Below are positions 8,756-41,218 of a stretch of DNA of 64,000 bases, one piece after another (position 1 is the stretch's first letter; each line of letters opens with the position of its first letter). The notes under the pieces were generated by a model, which had not been told where the DNA came from, made no database searches, and saw only the letters and a list, made by a program, of their open reading frames with translations. The translations under genes and the position numbers were made by a program. This DNA is from Streptomyces sp. NBC_00457 (lineage in GTDB: Bacteria > Actinomycetota > Actinomycetes > Streptomycetales > Streptomycetaceae). The stretch covers positions 2,976,001 through 3,040,000 of the forward strand of contig NZ_CP107905.1 of NCBI RefSeq assembly GCF_036014015.1, given 5' to 3'.

Positions 8756-8757
8756 GC

Positions 8758-9892: not shown

Positions 9893-9937
9893 TCTATACG
9901 ACCGACGACATTTCTATACGGCTGACATCTCTATACG
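9893..9937 (-). repeat. Triplicated CGTATAGA motif between arcA and the carbamoyltransferase gene
   Basis: TCTATACG occurs three times on the plus strand (9893-9900, 9913-9920, 9930-9937). Read on the minus strand, two units are GCCGTATAGA followed by (G/A)ATGTC; the first overlaps the arcA stop codon. Spacings are 17 and 20 bp. It may be a regulator array or a local duplication. Confidence 0.6.
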
Positions 9938-22836: not shown

Positions 22837-22882
22837 GATCGTTCCTGCTTTCCTGATGACTGCCTGATAGCTGCCTGGGTGC

Positions 22883-22950
22883 TTCAAATTTGGATGACCT
22901 CACGCTAGCCGACTATCCAAACCTGAACAACCCCTCGTCCAAAAATGGAC
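22883..22950. promoter_or_regulatory. Three MarR-type operator candidates
   Basis: The YceI-MarR gap holds GTCCA-AAAA-TGGAC (22937-22950, perfect dyad), TCCAAACCTGAA (22916-22927) and, read on the minus strand, TCCAAATTTGAA (22883-22894). All fit TCCAAA-NN-TGRA, with A-rich centres standing out from the GC-rich background. Confidence 0.6.
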
Positions 22951-22969
22951 AACAGGTACACTCGAATCC

Positions 22970-23473: not shown

Positions 23474-23536
23474 CGCCCCGGTTGTCCCGAGGAGCCCGGG
23501 GTACCCGGCTGCCGACCGCAGCCGAAGGAGCGCTTC

Positions 23537-26516: not shown

Positions 26517-26529
26517 CCCCTCTCAGGGG
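26517..26529. terminator. Small hairpin between convergent genes
   Basis: CCCCT-CTC-AGGGG forms a 5-bp stem with a 3-base loop, overlapping the stop codon of the isonitrile synthase gene and lying just after the oxidoreductase stop. It is weak but suitably placed. Confidence 0.4.
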
Positions 26530-27455
26530 CTCTGTTCGAAGTGGCTCGGCCGGCTATCGCACCGCACCAGGCGCCCCTCGCTCGCGGCGCGGACGCGCGG
26601 CATGAGAGTCCATGTGCCATCGGCCCGGAGCAGCGCGGCCGAGTGCCACGGCGTCGTCCAGGCGTCCGGCGCGTCGAGCAGCCGGATGCCGAACTTGGCG
26701 GCACCGACCGGCTGGGGGTGGATGGACAGGCGTACGGCACCGGGGTGGTGCTCGGCGATCAGGTCGCCCCAGGCGCGGCTGCGCTGAATGACGCCGTATG
26801 CGCGTCGTCGGCATTCACGCTGGAGGGCGGAACGGGTACCGGAGAAGCCGGCCGTGTCCTCGACGAGGAACCGGGTGATGCCCCGGTAGAGAGCTAGGGC
26901 GTGGTCGTCGGAACGGACCTCGGCGCGCAGGGCGTCCACCGTGGGGGCGTAGCGCTCGTGGACGTGGGCGCGTTTCGTGTCGTTCGGCAGGTCGCCGAGG
27001 ATGTCCCGGAGATCGAACACCGACAGTCTCTCCAGGCCCAACTGGTCTATGAGGAGGCGGAGTTCGTCGGCGTACGCGTCGATGTGCTCGTCCGGGACAC
27101 GGATCAGGTCGCCGAAGACATGGCCGTCGGAGCAGATGATGACGCGGGCACCGGGTGCGTAGATGTGCTCCACCTCCTCGCAGAGGGAGTCCAGGAAGCG
27201 GAGGGAGAGGCGTTCGCCCTGGTCGGGGAGGTGGCCGAGGACTTTGGCGGGGTTGGGGGACTTGCAGGGGAAGCCGGGGAGGGTGAAGCGGACGGGTGCG
27301 CCGGCTCGTACGAAGGCGTCGATCCGGCGCAGTTGGTGGGGGAACGCCTCGGCGGGGGCGGTGCGGGTGGCGTCCGTGGTGCGGTGGTGCGGGAGCAGCA
27401 GGCGCAGGATCGACGCGCTCGTGGTGAGCGTGTCCGGCGAGGTCGTCGACGGCAT
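26523..27455 (-). CDS. Isonitrile (isocyanide) synthase, PvcA/IsnA/DIT1 family
   Basis: A 310-residue homologue of PvcA/IsnA, which convert the amino group of L-tyrosine or L-tryptophan to an isonitrile using a carbon from ribulose 5-phosphate. Visible family blocks are FTLPGFPCKSPNPAKVLG (near residue 58), PDQGERLSLRFLDSL, IICSDGHVFGDL (near 105), DLRDILGDLPNDTKRAH and the C-terminal RLSIHPQPVGAAKFGIRLL with TPWHSA. The start ATG 27455 has GGAG upstream. It is the last gene of a minus-strand run, 26 bp after the P450. The usual partner, the Fe(II)/oxoglutarate oxygenase PvcB/IsnB, is absent. The amino acid substrate is not predictable from sequence alone. Confidence 0.9.
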   Translation of the reverse strand: MPSTTSPDTLTTSASILRLLLPHHRTTDATRTAPAEAFPHQLRRIDAFVRAGAPVRFTLPGFPCKSPNPAKVLGHLPDQGERLSLRFLDSLCEEVEHIYAPGARVIICSDGHVFGDLIRVPDEHIDAYADELRLLIDQLGLERLSVFDLRDILGDLPNDTKRAHVHERYAPTVDALRAEVRSDDHALALYRGITRFLVEDTAGFSGTRSALQRECRRRAYGVIQRSRAWGDLIAEHHPGAVRLSIHPQPVGAAKFGIRLLDAPDAWTTPWHSAALLRADGTWTLMPRVRAASEGRLVRCDSRPSHFEQSP

Positions 27456-27481
27456 GGGGGTGGGGTCTCCTCGGGAGGTCG

Positions 27482-28720
27482 TCAGACGCGTCGGTCGTAG
27501 CCCACGGGCAGGTGGTTGGTGCCGCGGCCGAGGACCGCCGGGATCCACTCGATCTCGTCGTCCGGGACGGCGAGGCGCAGGCCCGGGAGCCGGGCGAGCA
27601 ACGTGCCCAGGGCGACCTGGAGTTCGGTGCGGGCGAGGGCCGCGCCGGGGCAGAAGTGGATGCCGTGGCCGAAGGCCAGGTGCGGGTTGGGTGAGCGGTC
27701 CAGGTCGAGGGTGTCGGGGGCCTCGAAGCGGCGCGGGTCGCGGTTGGCGGCGCACAGGGAGACGATCACGGAGTCGCCGGCCGGGATGCGGGTGCCGTAC
27801 AGATCACTGTCCTCGGCGAAGAAACGCCAGGTGGTCAGCTCGAACGCGCTGTCGTACCGCAGAAGTTCCTCGACCGCGCGCGGGAGCAGGGCCGGGTCGT
27901 CGCGGAGGCGGGCGAGTTGAGCGGGGTGGCGGAACAGGGCGATCAGGGCCGTGGTGATCTGGTTCGTCACCGGTTCCTGGCCCGCCACCAGCAGCTGGAA
28001 GATCATGGAGTCCAGCTCTTCCTGGGACAGTTCGCGGTGGTCGCGGGCCACGACCAGACGGCTGAGCAGATCGTCGTTCCCGTGCGCGCGTTTGTGGGCG
28101 ACGATCTCGGCGATATAGCTCTGCAGCCCGTGCAGCCGGGCCTCGTACACCGGCCGCCCCGGATCGGCCGGACCGACCGGCTGGACGACCTTGCCCCAGT
28201 CGCGGTCGAAGCGTTCCGCCAACCCGGCGGGGAGCCCGATGACCTCGGCGAGGACCCGGAAGGGGAAATGGGCGGCGAACCCGGCGACGAGGTCGGCGGG
28301 TCCGGTCTCCGGCAGCCGGTCGATCAGGGCGTCCGCCAACTCCTGGAAACGCGGGCGCAGTTGCTCGACTCGGCGCGGGGTGAACGCTTCCGTGACATGG
28401 CGCCGCATCCGGGTGTGCTGCGGCGGGTCCTGGTGCAGGAGGTGCACCTGGAGCTGGGAGTGCTGCGGCTCCGGCATGATCGAGGCGCGGGCCCGCCAGC
28501 GGTCGTTGCCGCGGTCGTGGTTCTTGCCGAGCCGGTCGTCGTTGAGGGCGGCGTGGGCGGCGTCGTAACCGGTGACGAGCCAGGCCTGGACGCCGCTGGG
28601 GAAGAGCACCGGGTGCACCGGACCGTCCTCGCGCAGACGCTCGTAGAGCGGATAGGGATTGCTCTTGTAGGGGCAGCCCATGAGCGGGACGGGTTCGGAG
28701 AGCGGTTCCTGCACTGTCAT
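27482..28720 (-). CDS. Cytochrome P450 with atypical I-helix
   Basis: A 412-residue bacterial class I P450. The heme-ligand motif FGHGIHFCPGAALAR (Cys near residue 355) and EELLRYD (ExxR, near 283) are intact. The I-helix reads LVAGQEPVTNQI (near 243), so the usual acid-threonine pair (AGxET) has Pro in place of Thr, with a Thr two residues later. Such changes occur in P450s that do unusual chemistry such as coupling or C-C cleavage. ATG 28720 follows GAGGAA. It lies 20 bp after the asparagine synthetase gene and 26 bp before the isonitrile synthase gene. In fungal xanthocillin synthesis a P450 couples isonitrile monomers, so a comparable role is conceivable. Confidence 0.92.
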   Translation of the reverse strand: MTVQEPLSEPVPLMGCPYKSNPYPLYERLREDGPVHPVLFPSGVQAWLVTGYDAAHAALNDDRLGKNHDRGNDRWRARASIMPEPQHSQLQVHLLHQDPPQHTRMRRHVTEAFTPRRVEQLRPRFQELADALIDRLPETGPADLVAGFAAHFPFRVLAEVIGLPAGLAERFDRDWGKVVQPVGPADPGRPVYEARLHGLQSYIAEIVAHKRAHGNDDLLSRLVVARDHRELSQEELDSMIFQLLVAGQEPVTNQITTALIALFRHPAQLARLRDDPALLPRAVEELLRYDSAFELTTWRFFAEDSDLYGTRIPAGDSVIVSLCAANRDPRRFEAPDTLDLDRSPNPHLAFGHGIHFCPGAALARTELQVALGTLLARLPGLRLAVPDDEIEWIPAVLGRGTNHLPVGYDRRV

Positions 28721-28740
28721 CAGGTGGTTCCTCACGGTCC

Positions 28741-30561
28741 TCAGAGGGCGAGTTCGGGGCGGTAGTGGTCCAGCCACAGGGCCAGGTCGACGACGCGTTC
28801 GAGACGGAGGCGGTGGCCCCACTCCAGGCGGTCGGGCGGGGTGTCCAGGCAGGGCTTGATGCGGGTCTCGTCGGCCAGTTCGCGGACGAACGGCAGGACT
28901 TCGCGGGCCAGGTCCTGGAGGCCGCGGTTGTAGTCGGGGTGGTGGGTAGCCGGGTAGTGGTTCTTGGGCCGGAGCAGTACCGAGTCGGGCGCCAGGCCCT
29001 CCCCCGCGGCCCGCAGCAGGCTCTTCTCCCGGCCGTCGAAGCTCTTCAGCGCCCACGGGACGGAGTAGGCGTACTCGACGAGCCGGTGATCGCAGTACGG
29101 CACCCGCACCTCCAGCCCCTGCGCCATGCTCAACCGGTCCTTGCGGTGCAGGAGTTGGCGCAACCAGCGGGTCAGGGACAGATGCTGCATCTCGCGCTGC
29201 CGGTGCTCGGTCTCCGTCTCGCCCTCGATGTGCGGTACGGCGGCGAGCGCGTCGCGGTAGGTGTCCGCGCGGAACTCGCGTACGTTCAAGGCGAGTTCGG
29301 GGTTGAGCGGCATCGCGGCCTCGTCGCCCGTGACCAGCAACCAGGGGAAGGTGGACGCGGCCAGCGCCTTGGGGTTGTGGAACCAGGGGTAGCCGCCGAA
29401 CACCTCGTCCGCCGCCTCGCCGGACAGCGCGACGGTCGAGTGCCGTCGTATCTCCCCGAACAGCAGATACAGCGAGGTGTCCATGTCGCCCACCCCGATG
29501 GGCGAGTCCCGGGCCACGACGACCGCCTTCCGGTGCTCGGGATCGAGCAGGGCGTGCGGATCCAGGACGACGGTGGAGTGGTCGGTGCCGATGAAGGCGC
29601 CCGCCTCGGTGGCGTACGGGGTGTCGTGACCGGTTCTGAGCACATCGCCCGTGAACTGCTCGGCCTGGTCGCTGTAGTCGACGGCGTACGACCGGATCCG
29701 GGCGTCCGGGCCTTCGCGCAGCCGGAGTTCGTCTGCGAGCAGGGCGGTCAGGACGGTGGAGTCGATACCGCCGGAGAGGAGCGAGCACAGGGGGACGTCG
29801 GCTTCGAGCTGGCCACGCGCCGCGGTGCTCACCAGGTCGTGGACGCGGGCGACGGTCTCGTCCCGGCCATGGGTGTGTCCTCGGGCCGCCAACTGCCAGT
29901 AGCGGCGCTCCCGTACGCCGTCCCGGTCCAGGACCAGCACCCCGCCGGGCTCGACCTCGCGGACGCCGGACCAGATCGTCGGTCCCGTGTTGAACAGCAG
30001 GCTGTACGCCTCCCGCAGCCCGTCCGCGTCCACCCGCGGGCGGATCTCCGGGTGCGCGAACAGCGCCTTGGGCTCGGAGGCGAAGGCCAGTCCGCCGTCG
30101 ATGCGCGCCCAGAACAGCGGCTTGACGCCGAGCCGGTCGCGCACCAGCAGCAGTCGCTGCGCCCGTTCGTCCCAGACGGCGAAGGCGAACATGCCGTCCA
30201 GGTGCTCGGCGACGTCCTCGCCCCATTCGGCGTAGGCACGCAGGACGACCTCGGTGTCGCTGCGGGTGCGGAACTCATGGCCCAACGCCCGTAGCCGGTC
30301 ACGGAGTTCGTGGTGGTTGTAGACCTCGCCGCTGTAACTGAGTACGGATGTGGGCTCGTCGGCGCGGTCGGTCATCGGCTGACGGCCGCCCTCGATGTCG
30401 ATGACGGCGAGCCGACGGTGGCCGATGGCGGCGCGCTCACCGAGCCAGACGCCGCCCGCGTCCGGGCCGCGCGGGGCGAGGGTGGCGGTCATGGCCTCGA
30501 TGACGGGGGCTTGGGTGCGGGCGTCGGTGTGGAAGGACGCCCAGCCGGTGATTCCGCACAT
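28741..30561 (-). CDS. Asparagine synthetase (glutamine-hydrolysing) homologue
   Basis: A 606-residue AsnB-type amidotransferase. The N-terminal Ntn glutaminase starts MCGITGW with catalytic Cys2. The synthetase domain has the PPi-loop CSLLSGGIDST near residue 259 and GEAADEVFGGY near 385. ATG 30561 lies 5 bp after the MFS stop, so it is in the same operon. Because it is embedded between an exporter and isonitrile-forming enzymes, it more likely amidates a carboxylate in a natural product than serves general asparagine supply; AsnB homologues do this in several antibiotic pathways. Both active sites look complete. Confidence 0.92.
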   Translation of the reverse strand: MCGITGWASFHTDARTQAPVIEAMTATLAPRGPDAGGVWLGERAAIGHRRLAVIDIEGGRQPMTDRADEPTSVLSYSGEVYNHHELRDRLRALGHEFRTRSDTEVVLRAYAEWGEDVAEHLDGMFAFAVWDERAQRLLLVRDRLGVKPLFWARIDGGLAFASEPKALFAHPEIRPRVDADGLREAYSLLFNTGPTIWSGVREVEPGGVLVLDRDGVRERRYWQLAARGHTHGRDETVARVHDLVSTAARGQLEADVPLCSLLSGGIDSTVLTALLADELRLREGPDARIRSYAVDYSDQAEQFTGDVLRTGHDTPYATEAGAFIGTDHSTVVLDPHALLDPEHRKAVVVARDSPIGVGDMDTSLYLLFGEIRRHSTVALSGEAADEVFGGYPWFHNPKALAASTFPWLLVTGDEAAMPLNPELALNVREFRADTYRDALAAVPHIEGETETEHRQREMQHLSLTRWLRQLLHRKDRLSMAQGLEVRVPYCDHRLVEYAYSVPWALKSFDGREKSLLRAAGEGLAPDSVLLRPKNHYPATHHPDYNRGLQDLAREVLPFVRELADETRIKPCLDTPPDRLEWGHRLRLERVVDLALWLDHYRPELAL

Positions 30562-30566
30562 GGGGG

Positions 30567-31919
30567 CTACTCCTGGGTGAGGGGCGTGGCGGCGGTCCGC
30601 CGCGGCGGTCGAGCGAGCAGAGGTACGGCGAGACAGGCGGCGGTCGCGGCGAGCGCGAGGCCCGCCCGGGCGCCGTCGCCTCCGGGACCGGCGAGTCCCC
30701 AGGCGGCCGTGGCCAGGGCCGGGCCGAGCGTGAAGCCGAGGCTGCGGGCGAGTTGCACGGCGGAACCGGCGGTGGCCGCGCGGTCCGGCGGGGCGGCGTC
30801 CATGACGAGGGCCTGGGTCGGGCCACCGTTCAGGCCCATGCCGATGCCCGCGAGCGCCAGCCGCCAGGCGACGTCGGGCGGCGCCCAGCCGTCGCCGAGC
30901 GGGACCAGCAGGAGGAGACCCGCGGCGGTGAGGGCGGCGCCGGCGGCCGCGACGGGGCGGGGGCCGTACCGGTCGGCGAGGCGTCCGCCCACGGGTCCGG
31001 CCAGACCCATGCCGAGTGGGAAGGCGAGTACGGTCAGGCCGGTCGTCGTGGCGCTGACGCCGTCCTCGCGTTGGAGGTGCAGGGCGACGACGTAGTGCAT
31101 GGCGGCGAATCCGGCGGCGAGCGCGAGCACCGCGCTGTGTGCCCGGAGCAGACCAGGGACGCGCAGTACGCCGGTGAGCGGACGGGCGCCCGGTCCGCGC
31201 AGCCACCGCCACAAGGGCGCTACGGCGGCGAGCGCGAGCCACCAGGTGCCGAGGGTCAGCGACAGCAGCAGGAGCGTGACACCGCTCGCCACCAGCCCGG
31301 CGTCCGCAAGCGACCGCCGGTCGGGTTTCGTGAGCCCGCCGTCCCGCGGCATCGCACGCCACGCCACCGCCAACGCCAGTACGCAGAACGGGATCTTGAC
31401 CAGGAAGATCGCCTGCCAGCCCCAGTGATCGAGGAGCAGCCCGCCGACCGCCGGACCCGTCACCGCGCCGAGGGGGCCGAGGGTCGCGGGCACGCTCATC
31501 GCCCGGCCGCGCAGGTGCGGCCGCACGGAACGGATCGCCAGCACCGGCATCAGCACGAACAACACCGCGGCACACGCGCCCTGGACGAGCCGGGCGGCGA
31601 TGAGCCAGCCCGCGGAGGGCGCGGCGGCCGAGAAGGCGCTGCCCAGGGCGAAGCCGGTGGTCGCGGTGAGCAGCGCGGGCCTCAGGCCCACGCCGTCCAG
31701 CCACCGTCCGACCGGCAACAGCAGTACCACGACCGGGAGTTGATAGCCCAGTACGGCCCACTGCGCGGTCGCCGCCGACACGTGCAGACCGTCGGCGATG
31801 TCCACCTGTGCCACGTTGACGATGTTCATGTCGAGCATCGCCACGAAGGACAGCAGGCCCGCAACGGCGACCAGCGGCCAGCGGTCCTCGCGTATGCGAC
31901 CGGGCTGTGGGTCAGACAC
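30567..31919 (-). CDS. MFS transporter, drug:H+ antiporter type
   Basis: A 450-residue integral membrane protein of the DHA2-like efflux group. LLSFVAMLDMNIVNVA (near residue 19) is the family TM1 motif; about 12-14 hydrophobic segments follow, with the TM5 antiporter signature region GPLGAVTGPAVGGLL near 146. The GTG start 31919 has GGAAGACG upstream. It is the first gene of the MFS-AsnB-P450-isonitrile synthase run and probably exports the product. It is 79 bp downstream of the importer ATPase gene on the same strand. Confidence 0.9.
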   Translation of the reverse strand: MSDPQPGRIREDRWPLVAVAGLLSFVAMLDMNIVNVAQVDIADGLHVSAATAQWAVLGYQLPVVVLLLPVGRWLDGVGLRPALLTATTGFALGSAFSAAAPSAGWLIAARLVQGACAAVLFVLMPVLAIRSVRPHLRGRAMSVPATLGPLGAVTGPAVGGLLLDHWGWQAIFLVKIPFCVLALAVAWRAMPRDGGLTKPDRRSLADAGLVASGVTLLLLSLTLGTWWLALAAVAPLWRWLRGPGARPLTGVLRVPGLLRAHSAVLALAAGFAAMHYVVALHLQREDGVSATTTGLTVLAFPLGMGLAGPVGGRLADRYGPRPVAAAGAALTAAGLLLLVPLGDGWAPPDVAWRLALAGIGMGLNGGPTQALVMDAAPPDRAATAGSAVQLARSLGFTLGPALATAAWGLAGPGGDGARAGLALAATAACLAVPLLARPPRRTAATPLTQE

Positions 31920-31998
31920 CGTCTTCCGTCCCTCGTCTCGTGGGCGGGCTGCCGTTCGGTTCGGCAGCCTCGTCCCACAAGTCGGGAGGAAACGGTGG

Positions 31999-32808
31999 TT
32001 AGTTCCCGTACGTGTCCAAAACTCTCGTCGCGCTGTCCTCGGACGCCCGATGGTCGAAGGCGATCAGCGGGTCGCCGGTGAGGGGGTGGTCGACGACGGC
32101 CGCCCGTACGCCGAACACCTCGGCCATGAGGGCGGGCGTGAGCACGTCGCGGGGCGGGCCGGAGGCGACCACTTCACCGGCGTGCAGGACGTGCAGGCGG
32201 TCGCAGACGGAGGCGGCGGCGTTGAGGTCGTGCAGGGACACCAGGGTCGTACGGCGGCGCTCGCGCAGGAGGGTGAGGAGTTCCACCTGGTGGCGGATGT
32301 CGAGGTGGTTGGTCGGCTCGTCCAGGACCAGGACGTCCGGGTTCTGCGCGAACGCGCGGGCCAGCAGGACGCGTTGGCGTTCGCCGCCGGAGAGTGCGGT
32401 GAACCGGCGGTCGGCCGCCTGCGCCATGCCGACGTCGGACAGTGCCTGCGCCACGATGTCCCGGTCGGCGGCGTCCTCGCCCGCGAACGCCCGCTTGTAC
32501 GGGGTGCGGCCCATGGCGACGACCTCGCGGACGGTCAGCTCGAAGTCGCCGCCGCGTTCCTGTGGGAGGGCGGCGACATGTCGGGCCGACCGGGTCGGGG
32601 TGAGCGTGCGCAGGTCGGTGCCGTCGAGCAGGACCCGGCCGGCGGTGGGCTTCAGATGCCGGTAGACGGTGCGCAGGAGCGTGGACTTGCCGCTGCCGTT
32701 CGGGCCGACGAGGCCGGTGATCTCTCCCTCGGCGGCGACGAGATGGGCGCCGGAGACGACCGTACGGCCCGCGTAGGCGACCTGCAGGTCTTCGATGTCG
32801 ATCCTCAA
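31999..32808 (-). CDS. ABC importer ATPase, FecE/BtuD-like
   Basis: A 269-residue ATPase of the siderophore/cobalamin importer family. Walker A GPNGSGKST (near residue 35), signature LSGGERQR (near 139) and Walker B VLVLDEPTNHLD (near 160) are intact. No ATG is usable; TTG 32808 with GGGGAG eight bases upstream is the best start. The start lies at the end of a duplicated GCGGCAGTTGAGGA element and overlaps the stop of a nine-codon reading frame (MDRQSGSGS). It forms an importer with the permease and lipoprotein genes upstream. Relatives include the proposed F420-0 transporter group, so the ligand is not fixed by family. Confidence 0.9.
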   Translation of the reverse strand: MRIDIEDLQVAYAGRTVVSGAHLVAAEGEITGLVGPNGSGKSTLLRTVYRHLKPTAGRVLLDGTDLRTLTPTRSARHVAALPQERGGDFELTVREVVAMGRTPYKRAFAGEDAADRDIVAQALSDVGMAQAADRRFTALSGGERQRVLLARAFAQNPDVLVLDEPTNHLDIRHQVELLTLLRERRRTTLVSLHDLNAAASVCDRLHVLHAGEVVASGPPRDVLTPALMAEVFGVRAAVVDHPLTGDPLIAFDHRASEDSATRVLDTYGN

Positions 32809-32858
32809 CTGCCGCTCCCCGACTGCCGATCCATCGTGTTCGTCCTCAACTGCCGCTC
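32803..32858 (-). repeat. Short duplication spanning the permease/ATPase junction
   Basis: GCGGCAGTTGAGGA occurs twice, about 40 bp apart: once as the end of the permease gene, once as the ribosome site and TTG start of the ATPase gene. Between them, GAGGA precedes ATG at 32834 of a nine-codon frame MDRQSGSGS, whose TGA overlaps the TTG. It looks like a tandem duplication that created a coupled mini-frame. Confidence 0.5.
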
Positions 32859-33916
32859 TCCAGACGCCGGTCGAGCAAGTACAAGAGGGCCGGTGCGCCG
32901 AGCAGTGAGGTGACCACGCCGACCGGCAGCTCCTGTGTGTCCATCGCGACCCGGCACACGATGTCGACCACCACGAGGAGCAGCGCGCCGAACAGGGCGG
33001 AGACCGGGAGGAGCCGGCGGTGGTCGCCGCCGACGAGGAGACGGCAGGCGTGCGGCACCATCAGGGCGACGAAGGCGATCGCGCCGGAGACGGCGACGAG
33101 GACGCCGGTGAGGACGCTGGTCACGGTGAACAGCTCGCGGCGCAGACGGGTGACGTCGACGCCGAGCCCGGCCGCCGTCTCGTCGCCCATCAGCAGCGCG
33201 TTCAGGCCACGGGCGCGCCCCTGCAGGCACACCAGGGCCACCGGTACCGCCACGGCGGGCACCGCCAGCAGCTGCCAGCTCGCCCCGCTGAGGCTGCCCA
33301 TGAGCCAGAACAGCACGCTGTGGGTCTGCTGCTCGTCCCCGGCCTGGAGGACGAGGTAGCTGGTGAAACCGGACAGGAACTGCCCGACGGCCACTCCGGC
33401 CAGCACCAGCCGCAGCGGCGCGAATCCCCCGCCGCGCCGGGCCACCGTCCACACCAGGGCGAAGGTGGCGAGGGCGCCGACGAAGGCCGCGCCGGACAGC
33501 CCGAGTCCGAGCGCTCCCCCGGCGCTGACGCCGAGCACGATCGCGGCGACGGCTCCGAGCGAGGCTCCGTTGGAGATGCCCAGCAGATAGGGGTCCGCCA
33601 GTGGATTGCGTACGAGCGCCTGGACCGCCGTACCGACGATGCCGAGCCCGGCGCCGACGAGCGCGGCCAACAGGGCGCGCGGAACGCGCAGTTGCCACAC
33701 GATCAGGTCGTCGGTGCCCGGGCGGGCTGCCTCACCGGTCAGCCGCCGCCCGACGACCGCCCACACTTCGGCGGGCGGGATGGAGGTCGAGCCCCAGGAC
33801 ACGGCCACCGTGAGCGCGAGGAGCAGCGTGACACCCAGCGCGGCGGCCAGCGGCACGGCCGGAACGCGGCCGCGTGTCCCGGGTTCCGCGGTCCGGCGCG
33901 ACAGCACGGACGACAC
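32846..33916 (-). CDS. ABC importer permease, FecCD family
   Basis: A 356-residue permease with about ten membrane helices. Family signatures are LVRNPLADPYLLGISNGAS (near residue 95), VLAGVAVGQFLSGF (near 160) and VPHACRLLVGGDHRRLLP (near 285). GTG 33916 lies 2 bp after the binding-protein stop, with AAGG upstream. A single permease gene implies a homodimer, as in BtuC. Its last codons (LESGS) are repeated in the linker before the ATPase gene. Confidence 0.92.
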   Translation of the reverse strand: MSSVLSRRTAEPGTRGRVPAVPLAAALGVTLLLALTVAVSWGSTSIPPAEVWAVVGRRLTGEAARPGTDDLIVWQLRVPRALLAALVGAGLGIVGTAVQALVRNPLADPYLLGISNGASLGAVAAIVLGVSAGGALGLGLSGAAFVGALATFALVWTVARRGGGFAPLRLVLAGVAVGQFLSGFTSYLVLQAGDEQQTHSVLFWLMGSLSGASWQLLAVPAVAVPVALVCLQGRARGLNALLMGDETAAGLGVDVTRLRRELFTVTSVLTGVLVAVSGAIAFVALMVPHACRLLVGGDHRRLLPVSALFGALLLVVVDIVCRVAMDTQELPVGVVTSLLGAPALLYLLDRRLESGS

Positions 33917-33918
33917 GG

Positions 33919-34974
33919 CTAGTCGACCTTGCCGGGGTGGACGGCCTGGGCGATCTGCTCCACCGTGTCGGCGTTCTCCACCCCGGCGATGGTGGTCTGC
34001 TCGGAACCGATGCGCAGGAAGTGGTCTTCCTTGACGGCCGTCAGGCCCTTGGTGGCCGAGTTTGCCTTGAGCCACTTCTCGGCCTCGTCGAAAGCCTTCT
34101 CGTTGGCGTCGGCGCTGCCCCGGTCGCGGACCCCCAGCTGGATCCAGTCCGGGTTCTTCGCGATGACGTCCTCCCAGCCGACCTGCTTGAAGTCGCCGTC
34201 GCAGTCGCCGAAGGCGTTGCGGGCACCGGCGAGCGTGATCACCGCGTGGGCGACCTGGCGGTTGCAGACGACGAAGGGCTGCTTGGTGCCGGCGTCGTAG
34301 TCGAAGAAGAAGTACGTCGGCCGCTCGTCCTCGGGTGTGTCACCGACCGCCTTCTGGACGGCGTCCACCTTCGCCCGCATCCCGGCGACGAGTTTCTTCG
34401 CCTCGGCGCTCGTGCCGGTGACCTGGCCGAGCGAGGTGATGTCGTCCTCGACGGCGGCCAGGTCCGTGACCGGGCCCTTGGCCATGGCGGCGCAGGCGGT
34501 GGACTTCAGGTAGATGTGCTTGATCCCGGCCGCCTTGAACTCCTCCTCCGTCGGCGCGTCGCCCATACCGCCGCCCATGCCGTCCATGGACGCGAAGGTG
34601 TCGATGTAGACGTCCGCGCCGGAGCCGAGCAGCTTCTCCTTCGGGATGACGGTGTCGCTGAGCACCGGCACCTTCTGCGCCTGCGTGTCGAGCGCGGCGG
34701 GCAGTGTGCCCTTGCCGGGCGGGAAACCGGTTCCGATCACTTTGTCGCCGGCGCCGAGCCGGAGCAGCAGCTCCAGGCTGGACGCGTTGCTGGTGACGAT
34801 CTTCTCCGGGGCGGCGGAGAACGTGGTCTTCGCGCCCGTGCAGTCGGTGACGGTCACGGGCTCGGCACCCGCCGCGCTCCCGCCGGCCGAGTCCGTCTCC
34901 GCATCGCCGCAGCCTGCCAGGAGCAGACCACCGAGCACTGCGGCGGCCGTACCGCACCTCACACGAGAACGCAT
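33919..34974 (-). CDS. Siderophore/metallophore-type substrate-binding lipoprotein
   Basis: A 351-residue periplasmic-binding-type lipoprotein. ATG 34974 (MRSRVRCG) follows GGGGAG; the lipobox GLLLAGC is near residue 20. The two-lobe fold is marked by PEKIVTSNASSLELLLRLG (near 60) and WEDVIAKNPDWIQLG (near 270). Unusually, the first lobe contains SMDGMGGGMGDAP (near 138), and there are paired cysteine positions STACAAM, VVCNRQ and FGDCDGD. The Met-rich loop could be a soft-metal or isonitrile-metal contact, which is inference. It leads the permease and ATPase genes; a GGGAAC-containing region lies upstream. Confidence 0.9.
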   Translation of the reverse strand: MRSRVRCGTAAAVLGGLLLAGCGDAETDSAGGSAAGAEPVTVTDCTGAKTTFSAAPEKIVTSNASSLELLLRLGAGDKVIGTGFPPGKGTLPAALDTQAQKVPVLSDTVIPKEKLLGSGADVYIDTFASMDGMGGGMGDAPTEEEFKAAGIKHIYLKSTACAAMAKGPVTDLAAVEDDITSLGQVTGTSAEAKKLVAGMRAKVDAVQKAVGDTPEDERPTYFFFDYDAGTKQPFVVCNRQVAHAVITLAGARNAFGDCDGDFKQVGWEDVIAKNPDWIQLGVRDRGSADANEKAFDEAEKWLKANSATKGLTAVKEDHFLRIGSEQTTIAGVENADTVEQIAQAVHPGKVD

Positions 34975-35059
34975 CGAACTTCTCCCCGATCCACGATCCA
35001 CTTGCTACGCGGGCGAACGTCCGTCACCCGGTGCAGTAGTCGGGGTCAAGGGCGGATGA

Positions 35060-35121
35060 GTTCCCGGGGGCCGATGGCGAGACCTCGCCACCGACCCCCG
35101 TTCCCTGTGCCGCCCGTTCCC
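35060..35121 (-). promoter_or_regulatory. GGGAAC hexamers before the importer operon
   Basis: On the minus strand GGGAAC occurs at 35116-35121, 35100-35105 and 35060-35065, between the sigma gene stop and the lipoprotein gene. GGAAC is a common ECF -35 element, and the last copy has CGAC 17-18 bp downstream as a possible -10. This suggests control by the adjacent sigma factor but is not decisive. Confidence 0.35.
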
Positions 35122-35126
35122 GGGGC

Positions 35127-35789
35127 CTACGCCGCCACCAACGCGGCGTGCTCCGTCCGCGGCGCCGGCTCCTCCGCCAGCAGATCCATCAGCGTCGCCC
35201 GCGCGCGAGCGACCCGCGAACGGACCGTCCCCACGGGACAGTCGCTCACCTCGGCCGCCTCCGCGTACGGCAGTCCGAGCAACTGGGTGAGGATGAACGC
35301 CTCCCGGCGCTCGTCCGGCAGCCCCGCCAGCAGGTCGAGCAGCGCGATGCCGTCGTCGAACCCGGGCAGGTCCTGCGGCTGGGCCAGCTCGATCGCCAGC
35401 TGCCAGTCCGCTACGTCGGCCAGGCGGGGCCGGGCGGCGGCGTACCGATAGCGGTCGATCACCGCGCGCCGGGCGATGGACAGCAGCCAGGAACGGGCCG
35501 AGGAACGGCCCTCGAACCGGTGCAGACTGCCGAGCGCCCGCAGGAACGTGTCCTGCGCCAGGTCGTCGACCGCCTGGGGATCGGCGCAGAGATGGGCGAC
35601 GTACCGCAGGACGTCTCGGTGCAGCGCGCGGACGAACTGCTCGACGGCGTCCGGGTCTCCGCCGCGGGCGGCGAGCGCCCAGGCGGTTATCGAGTCGTCG
35701 AGGGTTGCCTGGTCGATGACTTCCGTCTGACTAACTACTTCCCTTCTGCCGTTTTTGTCGCACGAGGGAGGCAGGGCAGGAGTGATCAC
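35127..35789 (-). CDS. ECF RNA polymerase sigma factor
   Basis: A 220-residue group IV sigma factor. Region 2 contains VDDLAQDTFLRAL (near residue 73) and RSWLLSIARRAVIDRYR (near 95); region 4 contains LPDERREAFILTQLLGLPY (near 155) and CPVGTVRSRVARAR (near 183). GTG 35789 with GAAGGA upstream is chosen. No anti-sigma gene is adjacent, and there is no Cys-rich C-terminal tail of the CorE copper-sensing type. It sits between the importer and copper genes on the same strand, so it probably controls them. A direct repeat GGCGTCGTA (twice, near 35870-35890) lies in its upstream region. Confidence 0.92.
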   Translation of the reverse strand: MITPALPPSCDKNGRREVVSQTEVIDQATLDDSITAWALAARGGDPDAVEQFVRALHRDVLRYVAHLCADPQAVDDLAQDTFLRALGSLHRFEGRSSARSWLLSIARRAVIDRYRYAAARPRLADVADWQLAIELAQPQDLPGFDDGIALLDLLAGLPDERREAFILTQLLGLPYAEAAEVSDCPVGTVRSRVARARATLMDLLAEEPAPRTEHAALVAA

Positions 35790-35951
35790 CTGGTGTCCTT
35801 CTCGGTCATCCAGAATCGGACCGACGGCGCACGCGTGGGTGCGGCGGTCCGGTCAATGGGGATACGGCCGTACGACGCCTTTACGACGCCTTCATGGACG
35901 TACGACCGAAGCCCGAGGCGCGCATGGGCGGCCTCGGGTCACCGGCTGTCT

Positions 35952-36605
35952 TCAGATGACAGCGGTCCCCAGGGGTGGGCCCCGAGAGGTGATCGTGTGG
36001 ACAAGGAGGAGAAGCCGCGGCGCCCGCTCGGAGCGCCGACGGCGCACGACGAGGCGGGGGCGGTGCGGCGGGGTCGGCAGGGCGAGCAGCAGCCGCAGGG
36101 GTGCGGCCAGCCATCCGGCGACGGTGCGCAGGATGCCGAAGGCGGCGCGCTCGCCGTACGCCAGCCACAGTCCGCTCAGGAGCGCGGCGAGCAGGTGGGC
36201 GGCGAGCATGCCGAAAGACATGGAAGGCATGGAGGGCATGGAGTGCGAAGCCGTATGCCCCATGTGATCCATGTGGCCCATGTCCATATGGGCCGCGCCT
36301 ATATGGGTCGCGCCCATGTCCATGTCCGAGGTCATGGAGGTCGAGCCGCTCACCGACTGCGCGTACGAAAACGCCTGGTGCAGTGCGGTCTGGGCGACGA
36401 CCACGACCGTCACGACGAGGGCGAGCCCGCGTTCACGGCCCGCCAGGCCCCAGCCGACGACGCCGGTTCCGGCCACACCCGCGGCGAGCGTCCAGGCGGG
36501 CACATGGGCGCCGGACATCAGGACGTGGCCCAGGGCGGCGAGCAGCACACAGACGGCCGCGAACACCGCGGCCCGTACTGTGCGAGAACACCACCCTGCT
36601 GTCAT
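35952..36605 (-). CDS. DUF5134-like membrane protein with Met/His-rich loop
   Basis: A 217-residue protein with about five hydrophobic segments: near residues 11-31, 35-55, 58-78, 139-160 and 164-185. Between the third and fourth is a loop of about 45 residues with roughly 11 Met and 6 His, including MDMGATHIGAAHMDMG and GHMDHMGHTASHSM. Such loops bind Cu(I)/Ag(I) or Cu(II) in copper proteins. It resembles the DUF5134 family seen beside copper genes in actinomycetes, though the assignment is from memory. ATG 36605 follows GAGGATGAGG. It is likely an integral copper-binding or transfer protein. Confidence 0.75.
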   Translation of the reverse strand: MTAGWCSRTVRAAVFAAVCVLLAALGHVLMSGAHVPAWTLAAGVAGTGVVGWGLAGRERGLALVVTVVVVAQTALHQAFSYAQSVSGSTSMTSDMDMGATHIGAAHMDMGHMDHMGHTASHSMPSMPSMSFGMLAAHLLAALLSGLWLAYGERAAFGILRTVAGWLAAPLRLLLALPTPPHRPRLVVRRRRSERAPRLLLLVHTITSRGPPLGTAVI

Positions 36606-36755
36606 GGCGCCTCATCCTCGCATCCTGACGTCCACCGTCACGTCCGGGTACGGATATGGACCGTTCCCCCACTCGCCCCAAGGCGTGTGATCCACGCCAC
36701 GGCAACTCCCGGGAACGTACCGGGTTTCGGAACCGACGTCTGTAGGGCGGGCAGG

Positions 36756-37271
36756 TCACGAACCCGGCCGGACCACCACCGCGGGAACGTGCACCGGATC
36801 GCTGTGCCGGAAGTGCAGGGTGAACGCCACGAGGTCGCCGGTCCGCCAGTCGGCGCCCGCTCGCAGGGTCGCGTCGACGCTCTGCGGCGACATCGACAGC
36901 TCGCCGCCCGCGGGCACGGCGGCCGACTCCACGTCCTCGGCGTAGGCCGCCCCGCTGCCGGTCATACGGTGGCGGCTGAGCGTGATCTCACCGCGGACGT
37001 CGGTCGACGTGACCCGGACCAGCCGGTCGTCCGCGCCGCCGGAATTGGAGATGTCGAAGAAGGCCGCGGTGTCCGTGGTGTCGCCGTACGGCAGGAACAC
37101 GCGCGCGTTCGAGACGCCGACGCGGGGCGGGGTGCCCGCCTTTCCGGCACTCACCCAGGCCGTCAGGCCGGCCAGCGCGACGCTGCATGCGGCGACCGGG
37201 ACGAGGGCGGCGAGCAGGGTGTCGGCGAGGCGACGGCGGGTGGGGCGCCAGGGGTGGTGGGCCGAGGTCAT
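36756..37271 (-). CDS. PCu(A)C-type copper chaperone, membrane anchored
   Basis: A 171-residue protein with one N-terminal transmembrane anchor (about residues 15-38) and an extracytoplasmic cupredoxin-like domain. VGVSNARVFLPYGDTTDTAAFF (split over about 50-72) and VPAGGELSMSP (near 125) match the family that hands Cu(I) to cytochrome oxidase. The first ligand pair is present as SRHRM. The second, normally HxM after the proline-glycine turn, reads VDATL here, so the site appears incomplete. Its start overlaps the copper ATPase stop by four bases, indicating coupled expression. Confidence 0.82.
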   Translation of the reverse strand: MTSAHHPWRPTRRRLADTLLAALVPVAACSVALAGLTAWVSAGKAGTPPRVGVSNARVFLPYGDTTDTAAFFDISNSGGADDRLVRVTSTDVRGEITLSRHRMTGSGAAYAEDVESAAVPAGGELSMSPQSVDATLRAGADWRTGDLVAFTLHFRHSDPVHVPAVVVRPGS

Positions 37272-39637
37272 CGCGTACGTTCTCCTGCTCGCGTCGGCTG
37301 CCAGGCCCGCAGCCGCAGGCTGTTCCCCACCACCAGCACCGAGCTGAGCGACATGGCCACGGCGGCGAACATCGGGGTGAGGAGGCCCACCATGGCGAGC
37401 GGCAGCGTCACCGCGTTGTAGCCGAAGGCCCAGACGAGGTTGGCGCGGATCGTGCCCAGGGTGCGGCGGGCCAGCCGGATCGCATCGGCCAGGGCCTCGA
37501 TGTCGCCGCGCACGAGGGTCACGTCGGCCGCCCCGGCGGCCACGTCCGTGCCGCTGCCCATGGCGATGCCGAGGTCGGCTCCGGCGAGCGCGGCGGCGTC
37601 GTTCACGCCGTCGCCGACGACCGCGACGCGGTCACCGCGCTCCCTCAACTCCCGTACGAGGTCGGCCTTGTCCTCGGGTGTGCAGCGGGCGTGCACCTCG
37701 TCGATGCCCAGGTCGGCGGCGACGGCACGAGCGGACGCCGCTCGGTCGCCGGTCGCCAGGACCGGACGTACGCCCAGGCGCCGAAGCCGGTCGACGGCAC
37801 GGTAACTGCCGGGGCGCACGACGTCCCCGAGTTCGATCAGCGCCTGGTCGACTCCGTCCACCCGGACCAGCACCGGCGTGTGCGCGGCGGCCTCCGCAAC
37901 CGGCAGCGCGTCCGCCAGCGCGGCGGGCAACTCCCCGTCCGGAGCGGGGACTTCGACGAGTCGCCCGTCGACACGGCCCCGCACACCCACCCCCGGCACT
38001 GCCCGGAACTCGCTCACCTCGGGCAACGCCCCCTCCGGCAGCCCATCCGCCCGTGACACGGACAACTCCCCGTCCGGCCCAAGGACGTCAACAAACCGCC
38101 CGCCGACCCGCCCCCGCACACCCACCCCCGCCCGAAGCTCGCCCACCTCGGGCAACGACCCCTCCGGCAGCGCCCTTCGCGCGTACGCGGCGATCGCCCG
38201 CCCCAGCGGATGCTCCGAGCCCTGCTCGACCGCCCCGGCCAGCCGCAGCGCGGTCTCGCGGCCGAGGCCGCCCGGCACGGCGGTGATACGGGCGACGGTC
38301 ATGTGGCCGGAGGTGAGGGTGCCGGTCTTGTCGAGGACGACGGTGTCGATGTGCCGCAGCCCCTCCAGGGCCTGCGGTCCGCGGACCAGGACGCCGAGCT
38401 GGGCGCCCCGGCCGGTGGCGGCCATCAGCGCGGTCGGTGTCGCCAGGCCGAGGGCGCACGGGCAGGCCACGACGAGCACGGCCACACACGCGGTGACGGC
38501 GGCCTGCGGCTCGGCCCCGGCGCCCAGCCAGAAGCCGAGCGTCGTGACGGCGAGCGCGAGAACGACGGGGACGAAGACGCCCGCCACCGCATCCGCCAGC
38601 CGCTGCGCCCGCGCCTTGCCCGCCTGAGCCTCCGTCACCAGACGGGCGATCCGGGCGAGTTGCGTGTCGGAGCCGACCGCGGTGGCCCGGACGAGCAGCA
38701 GCCCGCCCGCGTTGACGGCCCCACCGACGACCGCCGCGCCCGGCCGCACCTCCACCGGCTCGCTCTCCCCGGTGACCAGGGACAGGTCCACCGCGGAACC
38801 GCCCTCCACCACCTCACCGTCGGTGGCCACCCGCTCCCCGGGCCGCACCACGAAGACCTGGCCGACCCGCAACTCCCCCAGGGGAAGCAGACGTTCACTC
38901 CCGTCTTCCCGTACCGCCACGTCCTTGACCGTGAGCGCCGCCAGCGACCGCAGCGCCGCTCCCGTCCCGTGCCGCGCCCGAGCCTCCAGAAAGCGGCCGG
39001 CGAGCACGAACAGCGGTACGCCGACGGCCGCTTCGAGGTAGATGTGCGCCACGCCGTCGGAGGCGGAGGGCAGCAGACTGAACGGCATCCGCATCCCCGG
39101 TTCGCCCGCGCCGCCGAGGAAGAGCGCATACGCCGACCAGGAGTACGACGCCACCACACCGAGCGACACCAGCGTGTCCATGGTCGCCGCCGAGTGACGG
39201 AGCCCGCGTACCGCGCGCGCGTGGAACGGCCACGCTCCCCATACGGCGACCGGTGCGGCCAGCACGAAGCACAGCCACTGCCAGTTGCGGAACTGGAGCG
39301 AAGGCACCATCGACAGCACGAGCACCGGCGTCGCGAGCAGCGCGGTGATCACCAACTGCCGTACATCATTTGGAAGTTCCGCCGCATCCCGATCAACCCG
39401 GCGCTCCTTCGGAGGCTCGGGCAGCGCGGCCGTGTACCCGGCCTTCTCGACGGTCGCGACCAGTTCCTCGGGCCGCACGGACTCAGGATGGCTCACCCGG
39501 GCCCGGCCGGTGGCGAGGTTGACGGTCGCGGTGACGCCGTCGAGTTTGGCGAGTTTCTTCTCGACGCGGTTCACACAGGCCGCACAGGTCATGCCGCCGA
39601 CGGTCAGGTCGGTGGTCACCAGGGTCGCTTCAGCCAC
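37268..39637 (-). CDS. Heavy-metal (copper) translocating P-type ATPase
   Basis: A 789-residue P1B-type ATPase. An N-terminal heavy-metal domain has VGGMTCAACVN (near residue 13); the membrane ion motif CPCALGLATP (near 386) identifies the Cu(I) group; DKTGT is near 434, SEHPLGRAI near 475 and GDGVNDAAAL near 673. The N-domain contains an extra 43-45-residue copy of its ELRAGVGVRGRV segment (about residues 486-570). GTG 39637 with GGGGAGGGCACG upstream is preferred to 39685; it overlaps the end of the small His-rich gene. It could export excess copper or load copper enzymes. Confidence 0.93.
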   Translation of the reverse strand: MAEATLVTTDLTVGGMTCAACVNRVEKKLAKLDGVTATVNLATGRARVSHPESVRPEELVATVEKAGYTAALPEPPKERRVDRDAAELPNDVRQLVITALLATPVLVLSMVPSLQFRNWQWLCFVLAAPVAVWGAWPFHARAVRGLRHSAATMDTLVSLGVVASYSWSAYALFLGGAGEPGMRMPFSLLPSASDGVAHIYLEAAVGVPLFVLAGRFLEARARHGTGAALRSLAALTVKDVAVREDGSERLLPLGELRVGQVFVVRPGERVATDGEVVEGGSAVDLSLVTGESEPVEVRPGAAVVGGAVNAGGLLLVRATAVGSDTQLARIARLVTEAQAGKARAQRLADAVAGVFVPVVLALAVTTLGFWLGAGAEPQAAVTACVAVLVVACPCALGLATPTALMAATGRGAQLGVLVRGPQALEGLRHIDTVVLDKTGTLTSGHMTVARITAVPGGLGRETALRLAGAVEQGSEHPLGRAIAAYARRALPEGSLPEVGELRAGVGVRGRVGGRFVDVLGPDGELSVSRADGLPEGALPEVSEFRAVPGVGVRGRVDGRLVEVPAPDGELPAALADALPVAEAAAHTPVLVRVDGVDQALIELGDVVRPGSYRAVDRLRRLGVRPVLATGDRAASARAVAADLGIDEVHARCTPEDKADLVRELRERGDRVAVVGDGVNDAAALAGADLGIAMGSGTDVAAGAADVTLVRGDIEALADAIRLARRTLGTIRANLVWAFGYNAVTLPLAMVGLLTPMFAAVAMSLSSVLVVGNSLRLRAWQPTRAGERTR
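37928..38190 (-). repeat. Tandem duplication in the copper ATPase N-domain
   Basis: CAACTCCCCGTCCGG recurs at 37928 and 38063 (135 bp apart), and ACCTCGGGCAACG recurs at 38016 and 38145 (129 bp apart). The two copies are highly similar and differ by a two-codon gap. They encode LPEGSLPEVGELRAGVGVRG and LPEGALPEVSEFRAVPGVGV blocks, in frame. Confidence 0.85.
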
Positions 39638-39878
39638 CGTGCCCTCCCCCGCCCCCGTGAGTCGTGCCGTCACCGTCGCCGTCATCGCCGTCGGAAACGG
39701 TTCCGGGGTCGTGCATGCCGGGCGCGACCGGTCCGGCGCCCGCGCCGACGGCGTACGACACGGTGAACAGCAGGGCGAGGAGCAGGAGGAAACCGCAGAG
39801 CGCGGGCGGTGGCAGCAGCTTGCGCAGTGCCGCGCCCGCGCCCGCGTCGGCGGGGAGTAGTCGGGTGTCGTCCATCAT
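39630..39878 (-). CDS. Small membrane protein with His-rich tail
   Basis: An 82-residue product, MMDDTRLLPADAG at the start. One hydrophobic segment, CGFLLLLALLFTVSYAVGAG (about residues 32-51), is followed by GPVAPGMHDPGTVS, an acidic stretch GDDGDGDG and a C-terminal THGGGGGHGG. It overlaps the start of the copper ATPase gene by eight bases, so it is almost certainly co-translated with it. The tail could bind copper or zinc. The start ATG 39878 (or 39875) has only a weak GAAG upstream. No family is recognised. Confidence 0.65.
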   Translation of the reverse strand: MMDDTRLLPADAGAGAALRKLLPPPALCGFLLLLALLFTVSYAVGAGAGPVAPGMHDPGTVSDGDDGDGDGTTHGGGGGHGG

Positions 39879-39933
39879 CTTCAGCAGTCGGGCCCGGCTG
39901 GGTCCGGGTTCCCCGCCCGCCCTGTGGCGCGCG

Positions 39934-41174: not shown

Positions 41175-41218
41175 CCGGGCAGAGCCGCGAGCCATAGCGG
41201 AGAGCTAGGCTCCTCGCT

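What the first reader, a model, noticed from the sequence alone, without database searches (positions are those of the whole stretch)
26523..39878. Possible isonitrile metallophore (chalkophore) system fused to a copper-handling island
Twelve minus-strand genes in about 13 kb combine a PvcA/IsnA-type isonitrile synthase, P450, asparagine synthetase homologue and MFS exporter with a FecBCD-type importer, ECF sigma factor, Met/His-rich membrane protein, PCu(A)C chaperone, Cu P1B-ATPase and small His-rich membrane protein. Isonitriles bind Cu(I) strongly; xanthocillin and the diisonitrile SF2768 are known copper-binding isonitriles. I know of no described system with this exact set. The parts cover synthesis, export, recapture, copper delivery and regulation. 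Gene content is seen; the joint function is inferred.
Basis: partly seen in the sequence, partly recalled or inferred. Interest (0 to 1): 0.92.

Follow-up and report, generated by a model that had tools for sequence, protein, structure and literature searches.

The report
Copper-scavenging isonitrile island, one regulon
A Streptomyces-like chromosome carries a gene island that looks built to make, export and take back a copper-grabbing isonitrile, and a promoter-like motif repeated in front of its parts ties the metabolite genes to the copper genes; the compound class is already known, the shared switch is the fresh part.

Summary
The twelve minus-strand genes at 26523-39878 are real and correctly described. 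They are the parts of a hazimycin-type diisonitrile chalkophore system plus copper genes. That chemistry is published (Matsuda 2024, seen only as a reference entry), so this is a new member of a known kind. What I add is the link between the halves. A promoter-like motif, GGGAAC-N17-CGACT, occurs exactly three times in the window, in front of the biosynthetic, importer and copper-ATPase units. In 80 related loci it occurs 117 times with spacer 17 and 0-2 times with each other spacer from 12 to 22. The ECF sigma resembles SigC of M. tuberculosis, which drives a different isonitrile pathway and a copper ATPase. In three genomes examined, the same sigma type and motif accompany that other, NRPS-type cluster, with a different importer lineage; three genomes have the importer but neither pathway. 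So one copper-starvation regulon appears to carry interchangeable isonitrile modules. The Met/His membrane protein nearly always next to the sigma is a candidate copper sensor, but its family also occurs without the sigma, which weakens that idea. No expression or metabolite data exist here.

The parts
26523..27455 (-). PvcA/IsnA-type isonitrile synthase (310 aa from ATG 27455; frame open to GTG 27755)
   Evidence: DIT1_PvcA 258.5 bits (longer frame); best solved relative P. aeruginosa PvcA 3e59, 275.6 bits; only PF05141 copy found in the genome
27482..28720 (-). cytochrome P450, probable phenol-coupling enzyme (inferred)
   Evidence: p450 99 bits; P450 of 60% identity or more in 79 of 80 PvcA loci; I-helix LLVAGQEPV in 78 of 80
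28741..30561 (-). AsnB-type glutamine-dependent amidotransferase, probable carboxamide-forming enzyme (role inferred)
   Evidence: asn_synth_AEB 471 bits over cut-off 267; MCG start and SGGIDS read in the sequence
30567..31919 (-). DHA2-like MFS exporter
   Evidence: MFS_1 171 bits
31980..32007 (-). promoter-like motif GGGAAC-N17-CGACT in front of MFS-AsnB-P450-PvcA (overlaps the end of the FecE gene)
   Evidence: exact match; 3 in window, 0.04 expected
31999..32808 (-). FecE/BtuD-like ATPase of importer
   Evidence: ABC_tran; F420-0_ABC_ATP 301.6 bits, below cut-off 372
32846..33916 (-). FecCD permease
   Evidence: FecCD 312.5 bits
33919..34974 (-). FecB-like substrate-binding lipoprotein (SBP)
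   Evidence: Peripla_BP_2 64 bits; lineage differs between PvcA-type and NRPS-type loci
35038..35065 (-). promoter-like motif in front of SBP-FecCD-FecE
   Evidence: exact match; exact motif within 400 bases upstream, mode 84, in 62 of 73 testable loci
35127..35789 (-). ECF sigma factor, SigC-like
   Evidence: best NCBIfam hit SigC 170 bits, under its 219 cut-off; best solved relatives are the two domains of M. tuberculosis SigC
35952..36605 (-). membrane protein with Met/His-rich loop and RGPP tail (MHmem), candidate copper sensor or copper-binding partner
   Evidence: upstream of the sigma, same strand, 131-826 bases away, in 51 of 51 loci with both ORFs called; no Pfam; AF2 model with four long helices plus a tail helix
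36756..37271 (-). PCu(A)C copper chaperone, probable N-terminal membrane anchor (by eye)
   Evidence: PCuAC 59 bits
37268..39637 (-). Cu(I) P1B-type ATPase
   Evidence: TIGR01511 499.5 bits over cut-off 397
39630..39878 (-). 82-aa protein with one probable TM helix and a His-rich C-terminus
   Evidence: translation; matches in 11 of 120 loci
39886..39913 (-). promoter-like motif in front of small ORF-CuATPase-PCuAC; only 7 bases between its -10 and the ATG, so a leaderless mRNA is possible (inferred)
   Evidence: exact match; its flanks score only 10.8 on the weight matrix, against 39.5 and 37.7 for the other two; same place in 7 of 17 testable loci

Best explanation
It is a copper-acquisition island. 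When copper is scarce, a SigC-like ECF sigma factor turns on three units through GGGAAC-N17-CGACT promoters. Unit one makes and exports the ligand: PvcA turns tyrosine into its isonitrile, AsnB turns the carboxylate into an amide, the P450 couples two phenols, giving a hazimycin-like diisonitrile, and the MFS pump exports it. Unit two (SBP-FecCD-FecE) takes the copper complex back. Unit three (small His-rich protein, Cu-ATPase, PCuAC) hands copper to extracytoplasmic cuproenzymes. The sigma gene lies in its own unit behind a Met/His-rich membrane protein that may report copper status. Shown: gene content, conservation, the shared motif, different importer lineages for the two ligand types. Inferred: the chemistry, the product, the sigma-promoter match, the copper signal, the direction of copper flow.
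For: Motif: 3 exact hits in the window, 0.04 expected, 0 of 100 shuffles reach 3 (the pattern was spotted by eye there, so this test is after the fact); 117 hits in 65 of 80 PvcA loci with spacer 17, 0-2 with each spacer 12-16 and 18-22, 0 reversed, permuted boxes mean 0.73 and maximum 4 of 30; 62 of 73 SBP starts carry it. Linkage: SBP in 62 of 64 loci with both 10-kb flanks, missing only in the two Archangium loci; sigma within 10 kb of PvcA in 20 of 29 PvcA-bearing genomes (distances by hand). Same sigma type and motif with NRPS-type clusters in G079, G115, G103 (L132/L133, L217, L218, L220); FcoT within 10 kb of the sigma for 6 of 12 copies. NRPS-type and PvcA-type SBPs are 24-33% identical. 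M. tuberculosis SigC induces the nrp isonitrile genes and ctpB, and its loss slows growth in copper-deficient medium (PMC7924339: abstract, section 2.2, passages). L152 and L154 keep the motif although the sigma lies about 0.8 and 6.6 Mb away, as for a trans-acting factor.
Against: No expression, binding or metabolite data. Sigma-promoter pairing rests on co-occurrence, and the loci are related by descent, so counts are not independent events. Genome-wide the motif barely stands out: 13 hits against 6 for the reversed pattern in this genome, and 8.45 against 8.95 on average in the 20 sigma-bearing same-genus genomes. Exact MFS sites occur in only 28 of 67 loci, ATPase sites in 7 of 17. MHmem-sigma units lack the motif. 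15 of 64 full-flank loci lack the sigma within 10 kb and 15 lack AsnB, so the ligand is not the same everywhere. The NCBIfam tyrosine PvcA equivalog cut-off is not met (279 of 600), so the substrate is uncertain.
Confidence: 0.8

Rival explanations
1. The isonitrile is chiefly an antibiotic that robs rivals of copper; the copper ATPase and chaperone protect the producer, and uptake is secondary.
For: Hazimycin was first known as an antibiotic (recalled). Most bacterial P1B copper ATPases export copper (stated in PMC9147137, passages), and that paper contrasts its own data on CtpB with an earlier report of enhanced copper resistance.
Against: A FecBCD-type SBP stands in 62 of 64 full-flank loci, usually with its own motif (62 of 73); importer-only genomes exist; the SigC relative acts in copper scarcity.
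Confidence: 0.15
2. Two independent neighbours: an isonitrile cluster that landed beside a copper-homeostasis locus, without joint function.
For: The sigma occurs without PvcA: 40 of 67 sigma-bearing genomes have no PF05141 match. At a syntenic site in two genomes (L120, L121) sigma and MHmem are present and the PvcA-to-SBP block absent.
Against: The same motif precedes units of both halves; a second, unrelated isonitrile cluster sits in the same setting.
Confidence: 0.05
3. MHmem is not a regulator but a general extracytoplasmic copper-binding protein; the sigma is controlled by other means.
For: MHmem relatives occur in 96 of 99 sampled genomes of the order. Of 40 loci fetched, 30 have no SigC-like ECF gene in the stretch, many with YcnI-like, Sco-like (names by eye) or PCuAC genes nearby; the RGPP tail occurs in 40 of 42 MHmem hits, with or without a sigma. 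No anti-sigma Pfam domain; no match in the fold search.
Against: From the sigma side the pairing is nearly obligatory: 51 of 51 PvcA loci with both ORFs called and 28 of 30 sigma loci without local PvcA. Exceptions: L118, L141 (about 7 kb off) and L059.
Confidence: 0.55

Closest known systems
Hazimycin chalkophore cluster (Matsuda et al. 2024, J Antibiot 77:228; seen only as a reference entry in PMC11085572; content, including the Kitasatospora host, recalled)
   Same: PvcA-type isonitrile synthase, tailoring enzymes fitting a tyrosine-derived diisonitrile diamide, exporter and importer genes (recalled)
   Different: Could not compare sequences. I do not know whether that paper treats the sigma factor, the shared motif, MHmem or the NRPS counterpart.
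M. tuberculosis SigC regulon: nrp operon (Rv0096-Rv0101) plus ctpB (PMC7924339, PMC9147137, PMC9600254; abstract, one section and passages seen)
   Same: A SigC-type ECF sigma linked to an isonitrile ligand and a copper P1B ATPase, for copper scarcity
   Different: There the isonitrile is an NRPS lipopeptide; sigC is described as monocistronic with no known anti-sigma. In a sample of 198 genomes of the phylum an MHmem query matched 9: 8 of the window's genus and one other by a weak partial hit.
SF2768 diisonitrile chalkophore of Streptomyces thioluteus (Wang 2017, cited in PMC9600254 passages)
   Same: Isonitrile copper ligand for uptake in Streptomyces
   Different: NRPS-type route; no FcoT match in this genome. 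Clusters of that type accompany the same sigma type and motif in L217, L218, L220.
P. aeruginosa PvcA/PvcB and cyanobacterial IsnA/IsnB pathways (pathways recalled)
   Same: Isonitrile synthase family and probable reaction
   Different: No PvcB-type Fe/2-oxoglutarate enzyme among the island's scanned genes; AsnB instead, so the carboxylate is probably kept and amidated (inferred).

Membership tests
Hazimycin-type chalkophore cluster | PvcA-type isonitrile synthase | tested here: met
Hazimycin-type chalkophore cluster | amidotransferase and P450 genes beside it (feature recalled) | tested here: met
   genes present; their reactions are inferred
Hazimycin-type chalkophore cluster | exporter and importer genes (feature recalled) | tested here: met
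Hazimycin-type chalkophore cluster | sequence orthology with the published cluster | not tested
   paper not held; its sequence was not sought by name
Hazimycin-type chalkophore cluster | copper-binding diisonitrile product | not testable with these tools
   needs metabolite work
NCBIfam TyIsonSynPvcA (tyrosine isonitrile synthase equivalog) | score over curated cut-off 600 | tested here: not met
   278.9 bits
NCBIfam SigC (NF007231) | score over curated cut-off 219 | tested here: not met
   170.2 bits, though the best family hit, just ahead of NF009187 at 168.5, and M. tuberculosis SigC is the nearest solved relative: works like, not filed as
Copper-translocating P1B ATPase | TIGR01511 over cut-off 397 | tested here: met
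   499.5 bits
NRPS-type diisonitrile lipopeptide cluster | FcoT gene | tested here: not met
   no FcoT match in G000
Anti-sigma factor (for MHmem) | recognisable anti-sigma domain | tested here: not met
   24 members scanned at E up to 10: eight chance-level families, one member each, best E 0.025, none an anti-sigma family
Anti-sigma factor (for MHmem) | binds and holds the sigma | not testable with these tools
   needs a binding assay

The most novel reading that the evidence does not exclude
One ancient copper-starvation switch, a SigC-type sigma with a dedicated promoter and, in Streptomycetales, a Met/His membrane protein as its copper sensor, acts as a socket for interchangeable isonitrile chalkophores: a PvcA/tyrosine type in some strains, an NRPS lipopeptide type in others, each with its own importer lineage, and importer-only strains that steal the ligand. 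The membrane protein would be the missing partner that tells a SigC-type sigma that copper is short.
Probability: 0.3. Interest if true: 0.82.

Novelty: new member of a known kind. Interest (0 to 1): 0.62.

Why it matters
Isonitrile chalkophores are known one by one; a shared sigma factor, promoter and swappable ligand and importer modules would give a general rule for finding copper-scavenging metabolites (look for the sigma with the motif beside it, not only for the enzyme). It would also put the open question of how a SigC-type sigma senses copper shortage (stated as open in PMC7924339, passages) within reach in harmless soil bacteria, and it predicts strains that pirate another species' copper ligand.

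Tried and rejected
MHmem as a proven anti-sigma: weakened, because relatives without a sigma beside them share the same RGPP tail. DJ-1/PfpI protein at 40479-41174 as an isocyanide hydratase: nearest solved relatives are ThiJ, glyoxalase III and Hsp31 types, and a tblastn search found it in none of 120 related loci, many of which do not reach that far, so it is left out. Genome-wide motif scan as regulon finder: too noisy, on 28 of the 121 genomes, sigma-bearing genomes have more hits than sigma-less ones (8.45 of 20 genomes against 4.63 of 8; Mann-Whitney p 0.002), but they are also larger and their reversed-pattern counts are higher too (8.95 against 6.88). Motif with two mismatches in the window: 37 found, 29.5 expected, 9 of 100 shuffles reach 37, so only the exact form is informative. 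MHmem fold search: no match. MHmem outside Streptomycetales: almost none, so it does not point to a mycobacterial counterpart.

Rows dropped or special; upstream distances above 10,000 are slicing artefacts at locus edges and were ignored; for the CuATPase this leaves 17 of 25 rows; 55 sigma ORFs were called, 51 with MHmem; of the other four, L004 and L072 lie near a locus or contig edge, L078 has MHmem with a better query, and L046 is a 26% paralogue. L014, L056 and L059 had sigma hits but no ORF called; L059 shows no MHmem in the 3.4 kb available. L222's sigma showed no MHmem, but a profile search finds it directly upstream; the no-ECF MHmem control held 25 of 30 such loci (0 motifs); left out were L167, L168, L170, L171, L190, of which L170 and L190 hold two motifs each, so the full count is 28 of 30 loci without a motif; L170 has an NRPS-type importer; the PvcA group holds 90 SBP-like ORFs from 80 loci; 79 are 58% or more identical to L002's SBP, 11 (second copies in ten loci, and L018) are 28-30%. 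Three of the 40 stretches are the same places as loci (L146=L013, L147=L067, L150=L078), so the two samples are not independent.
Full report
What is there. The window lies in a 10.8-Mb single-contig genome; by its nearest relatives it is a Streptomyces. PvcA is the genome's only DIT1_PvcA match. The AsnB-type protein begins MCG and carries SGGIDS (read), so both its glutaminase and synthetase halves look intact. The copper ATPase is one of four close copies in the genome, the others being 55-58% identical in their best segments. The small His-rich gene before the ATPase has matches in 11 of 120 loci.

Chance or system. Of 114 related places found with PvcA, the best 80 were kept. A close P450 is present in 79 of 80. 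In the 64 loci with both 10-kb flanks: SBP 62, FecE 62, FecCD 61, MFS 51, AsnB 49, sigma 49, MHmem 50, PCuAC 27, CuATPase 23 (identity thresholds); in the window's own layout the last two lie at or beyond a 10-kb flank. The two loci without SBP are Archangium. In 121 Streptomycetaceae genomes drawn without regard to PvcA (partly the same genomes), 29 have PvcA and 67 the sigma at E<=1e-30. By hand from those two tables, PvcA and sigma are within 10 kb in 20 of the 29, far apart or on different contigs in 7, and the sigma is absent in 2.

The link between the halves. GGGAAC-N17-CGACT was first seen by eye upstream of the window's units, then counted, so the window test is after the fact: 3 exact hits, 0.04 expected, 0 of 100 shuffles reaching 3, all on the minus strand and each just before a unit. 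The stronger test is elsewhere. In the 80 PvcA loci: 117 hits in 65 loci with spacer 17; each spacer 12-16 and 18-22 gives 0-2; reversed pattern 0; thirty permuted box pairs mean 0.73, maximum 4. These loci are related, so hits are not independent, but the spacer letters vary. By position: 62 of 73 SBP starts with enough upstream sequence have the exact motif, most often 84 bases upstream; 28 of 67 MFS starts; and 6 of 78 P450 starts, these six with two sites each. A weight matrix built from these sites finds it before the CuATPase unit in 7 of 17 testable loci (L013, L042, L047, L055, L057, L067, L069, scores 14.5-33), while the other ten score -4.7 or less. Since the matrix was trained on SBP, MFS and P450 sites, the ATPase sites are a partly independent test. 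No MHmem or sigma start with valid upstream sequence scored above 1, as if the sigma is not self-activating; [quoted passage not shown]

Not isonitrile-specific. Thirty sigma loci without local PvcA (L115-L144) hold 21 motifs in 16 loci, against 1 for the reversed pattern. They stand before CuATPase (L115, L129, L136), PCuAC (L140), FecBCD without PvcA (L131, L137), a ZnuA-like lipoprotein (L134; under the Pfam cut-off), MFS genes (L132, L133, L142), and also before genes of no obvious copper role (a CoA-transferase, a methyltransferase, a thioredoxin-like protein) or inside a gene. In L132 and L133 that MFS gene is the first of an NRPS cluster, read further as L218 and L217: MFS, ketosynthase III, TauD, FcoT, AMP ligase, ACP, NRPS, then a second motif and SBP-FecCD-FecE. 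L220 has the same set, with one extra 246-aa gene between the first motif and the MFS gene (Pfam was run on seven L217 proteins of this set and one of L220). These are the recognisable parts of the SF2768/nrp-type diisonitrile lipopeptide pathway (pathway from passages of PMC7924339 and PMC9600254; single enzyme roles recalled). FcoT occurs in 11 of 121 genomes, 12 copies, 6 of them within 10 kb of the sigma. The three NRPS-linked SBPs are 64-91% identical to their nearest within the type and 24-33% across to the PvcA group and its relatives. Four importers without isonitrile genes in the stretch read (L131, L176, L219, L221) are 67-76% identical to PvcA-type SBPs, and for three of their genomes (G014, G032, G082) neither PvcA nor FcoT was matched anywhere (L176's genome was not in those samples). 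That is what ligand piracy would look like, though loss of the synthase would too.

The membrane protein. The AF2 model of MHmem (mean pLDDT 72.8, pTM 0.51) has four long helices, a disordered Met/His loop and a tail helix just before RGPP; membrane topology is inferred. Invariant residues in 24 aligned members include three histidines in or beside the membrane helices, a cysteine and the RGPP. It lies upstream of the sigma on the same strand, 131-826 bases away, in 51 of 51 PvcA loci with both ORFs called, and upstream in 28 of 30 other sigma loci; L118, L141 and L059 are exceptions. Against a private role: relatives occur in 96 of 99 genomes of the order sample, 30 of 40 fetched loci have no SigC-like gene nearby, and 40 of 42 hits keep the RGPP. 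I put the sensor reading at about one in three.

Likely chemistry. No PvcB-type oxygenase is among the island's genes, and AsnB is present, so the tyrosine isonitrile would keep its carboxylate and have it amidated; phenol coupling by the P450 then gives hazimycin (structure recalled). The P450 has an unusual I-helix, LLVAGQEPV in 78 of 80 loci, in place of the common AGxDT/AGxET (canonical motif recalled), which fits chemistry other than ordinary oxygen insertion. Fifteen of 64 full loci lack AsnB, so acid variants or other ligands are to be expected there.

What is known. Hazimycins as actinobacterial chalkophores are published (Matsuda et al. 2024), which I could see only as a reference entry; its abstract I recall. 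SigC of M. tuberculosis controls the nrp isonitrile genes and ctpB (PMC7924339: abstract, section 2.2, passages). My searches (open-licence PMC only, listings seen) listed no report of a SigC-type regulon on Streptomyces isonitrile clusters, which is no proof that none exists.

Verdict. The shared motif and the interchangeable isonitrile modules are the part worth following up.

Noticed in passing
L027 and L039 (Archangium), about 8610-10933: Two myxobacterial genomes carry PvcA (75-77% identity) and the P450 (84-85%) side by side but none of the other island genes in the 10-kb flanks; looks like transfer of the two-gene core from Streptomyces.
   Followed up: partly
L074, L076, L077, L079-L081; also L064, L073, L075: PvcA loci without AsnB; the first six also lack the MFS exporter in the flanks and carry two motifs before the P450. 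Their product should differ from hazimycin.
   Followed up: no
L167-L206 (MHmem relatives): A multicopy Streptomycetales family of Met/His-rich membrane proteins with an RGPP tail and no Pfam family, often next to YcnI-like, Sco-like, PCuAC or PepSY-like genes (names mostly by eye).
   Followed up: partly
L131, L219, L221: PvcA-type importer, sigma, MHmem and motif in genomes where neither PvcA nor FcoT was matched: possible users of another strain's copper ligand.
   Followed up: partly
L120 and L121 (G083, G089): Syntenic site (same oxidase, MarR and YceI neighbours as the window's 22321-26509) with sigma and MHmem but without the PvcA-to-SBP block: presence or absence of the module at one place.
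   Followed up: yes
L019, L024, L026, L030, L032, L036-L038, L040, L145: A second SBP-like ORF, 28-30% identical to the main one, mostly just after PvcA.
   Followed up: no
window 40479-42208: DJ-1/PfpI-family gene and LysR regulator just beyond the island; ThiJ/Hsp31-like; the DJ-1 gene was not found at the other loci.
   Followed up: yes
L058 and L076: Records titled Saccharothrix and Streptosporangium carry Kitasatospora- or Streptomyces-like versions of the island; the names may be outdated or the genes moved.
   Followed up: no
L139:5054-6088: The motif precedes a ferric-reductase-like membrane protein in one sigma locus; a reductase would make sense before copper uptake.
   Followed up: no
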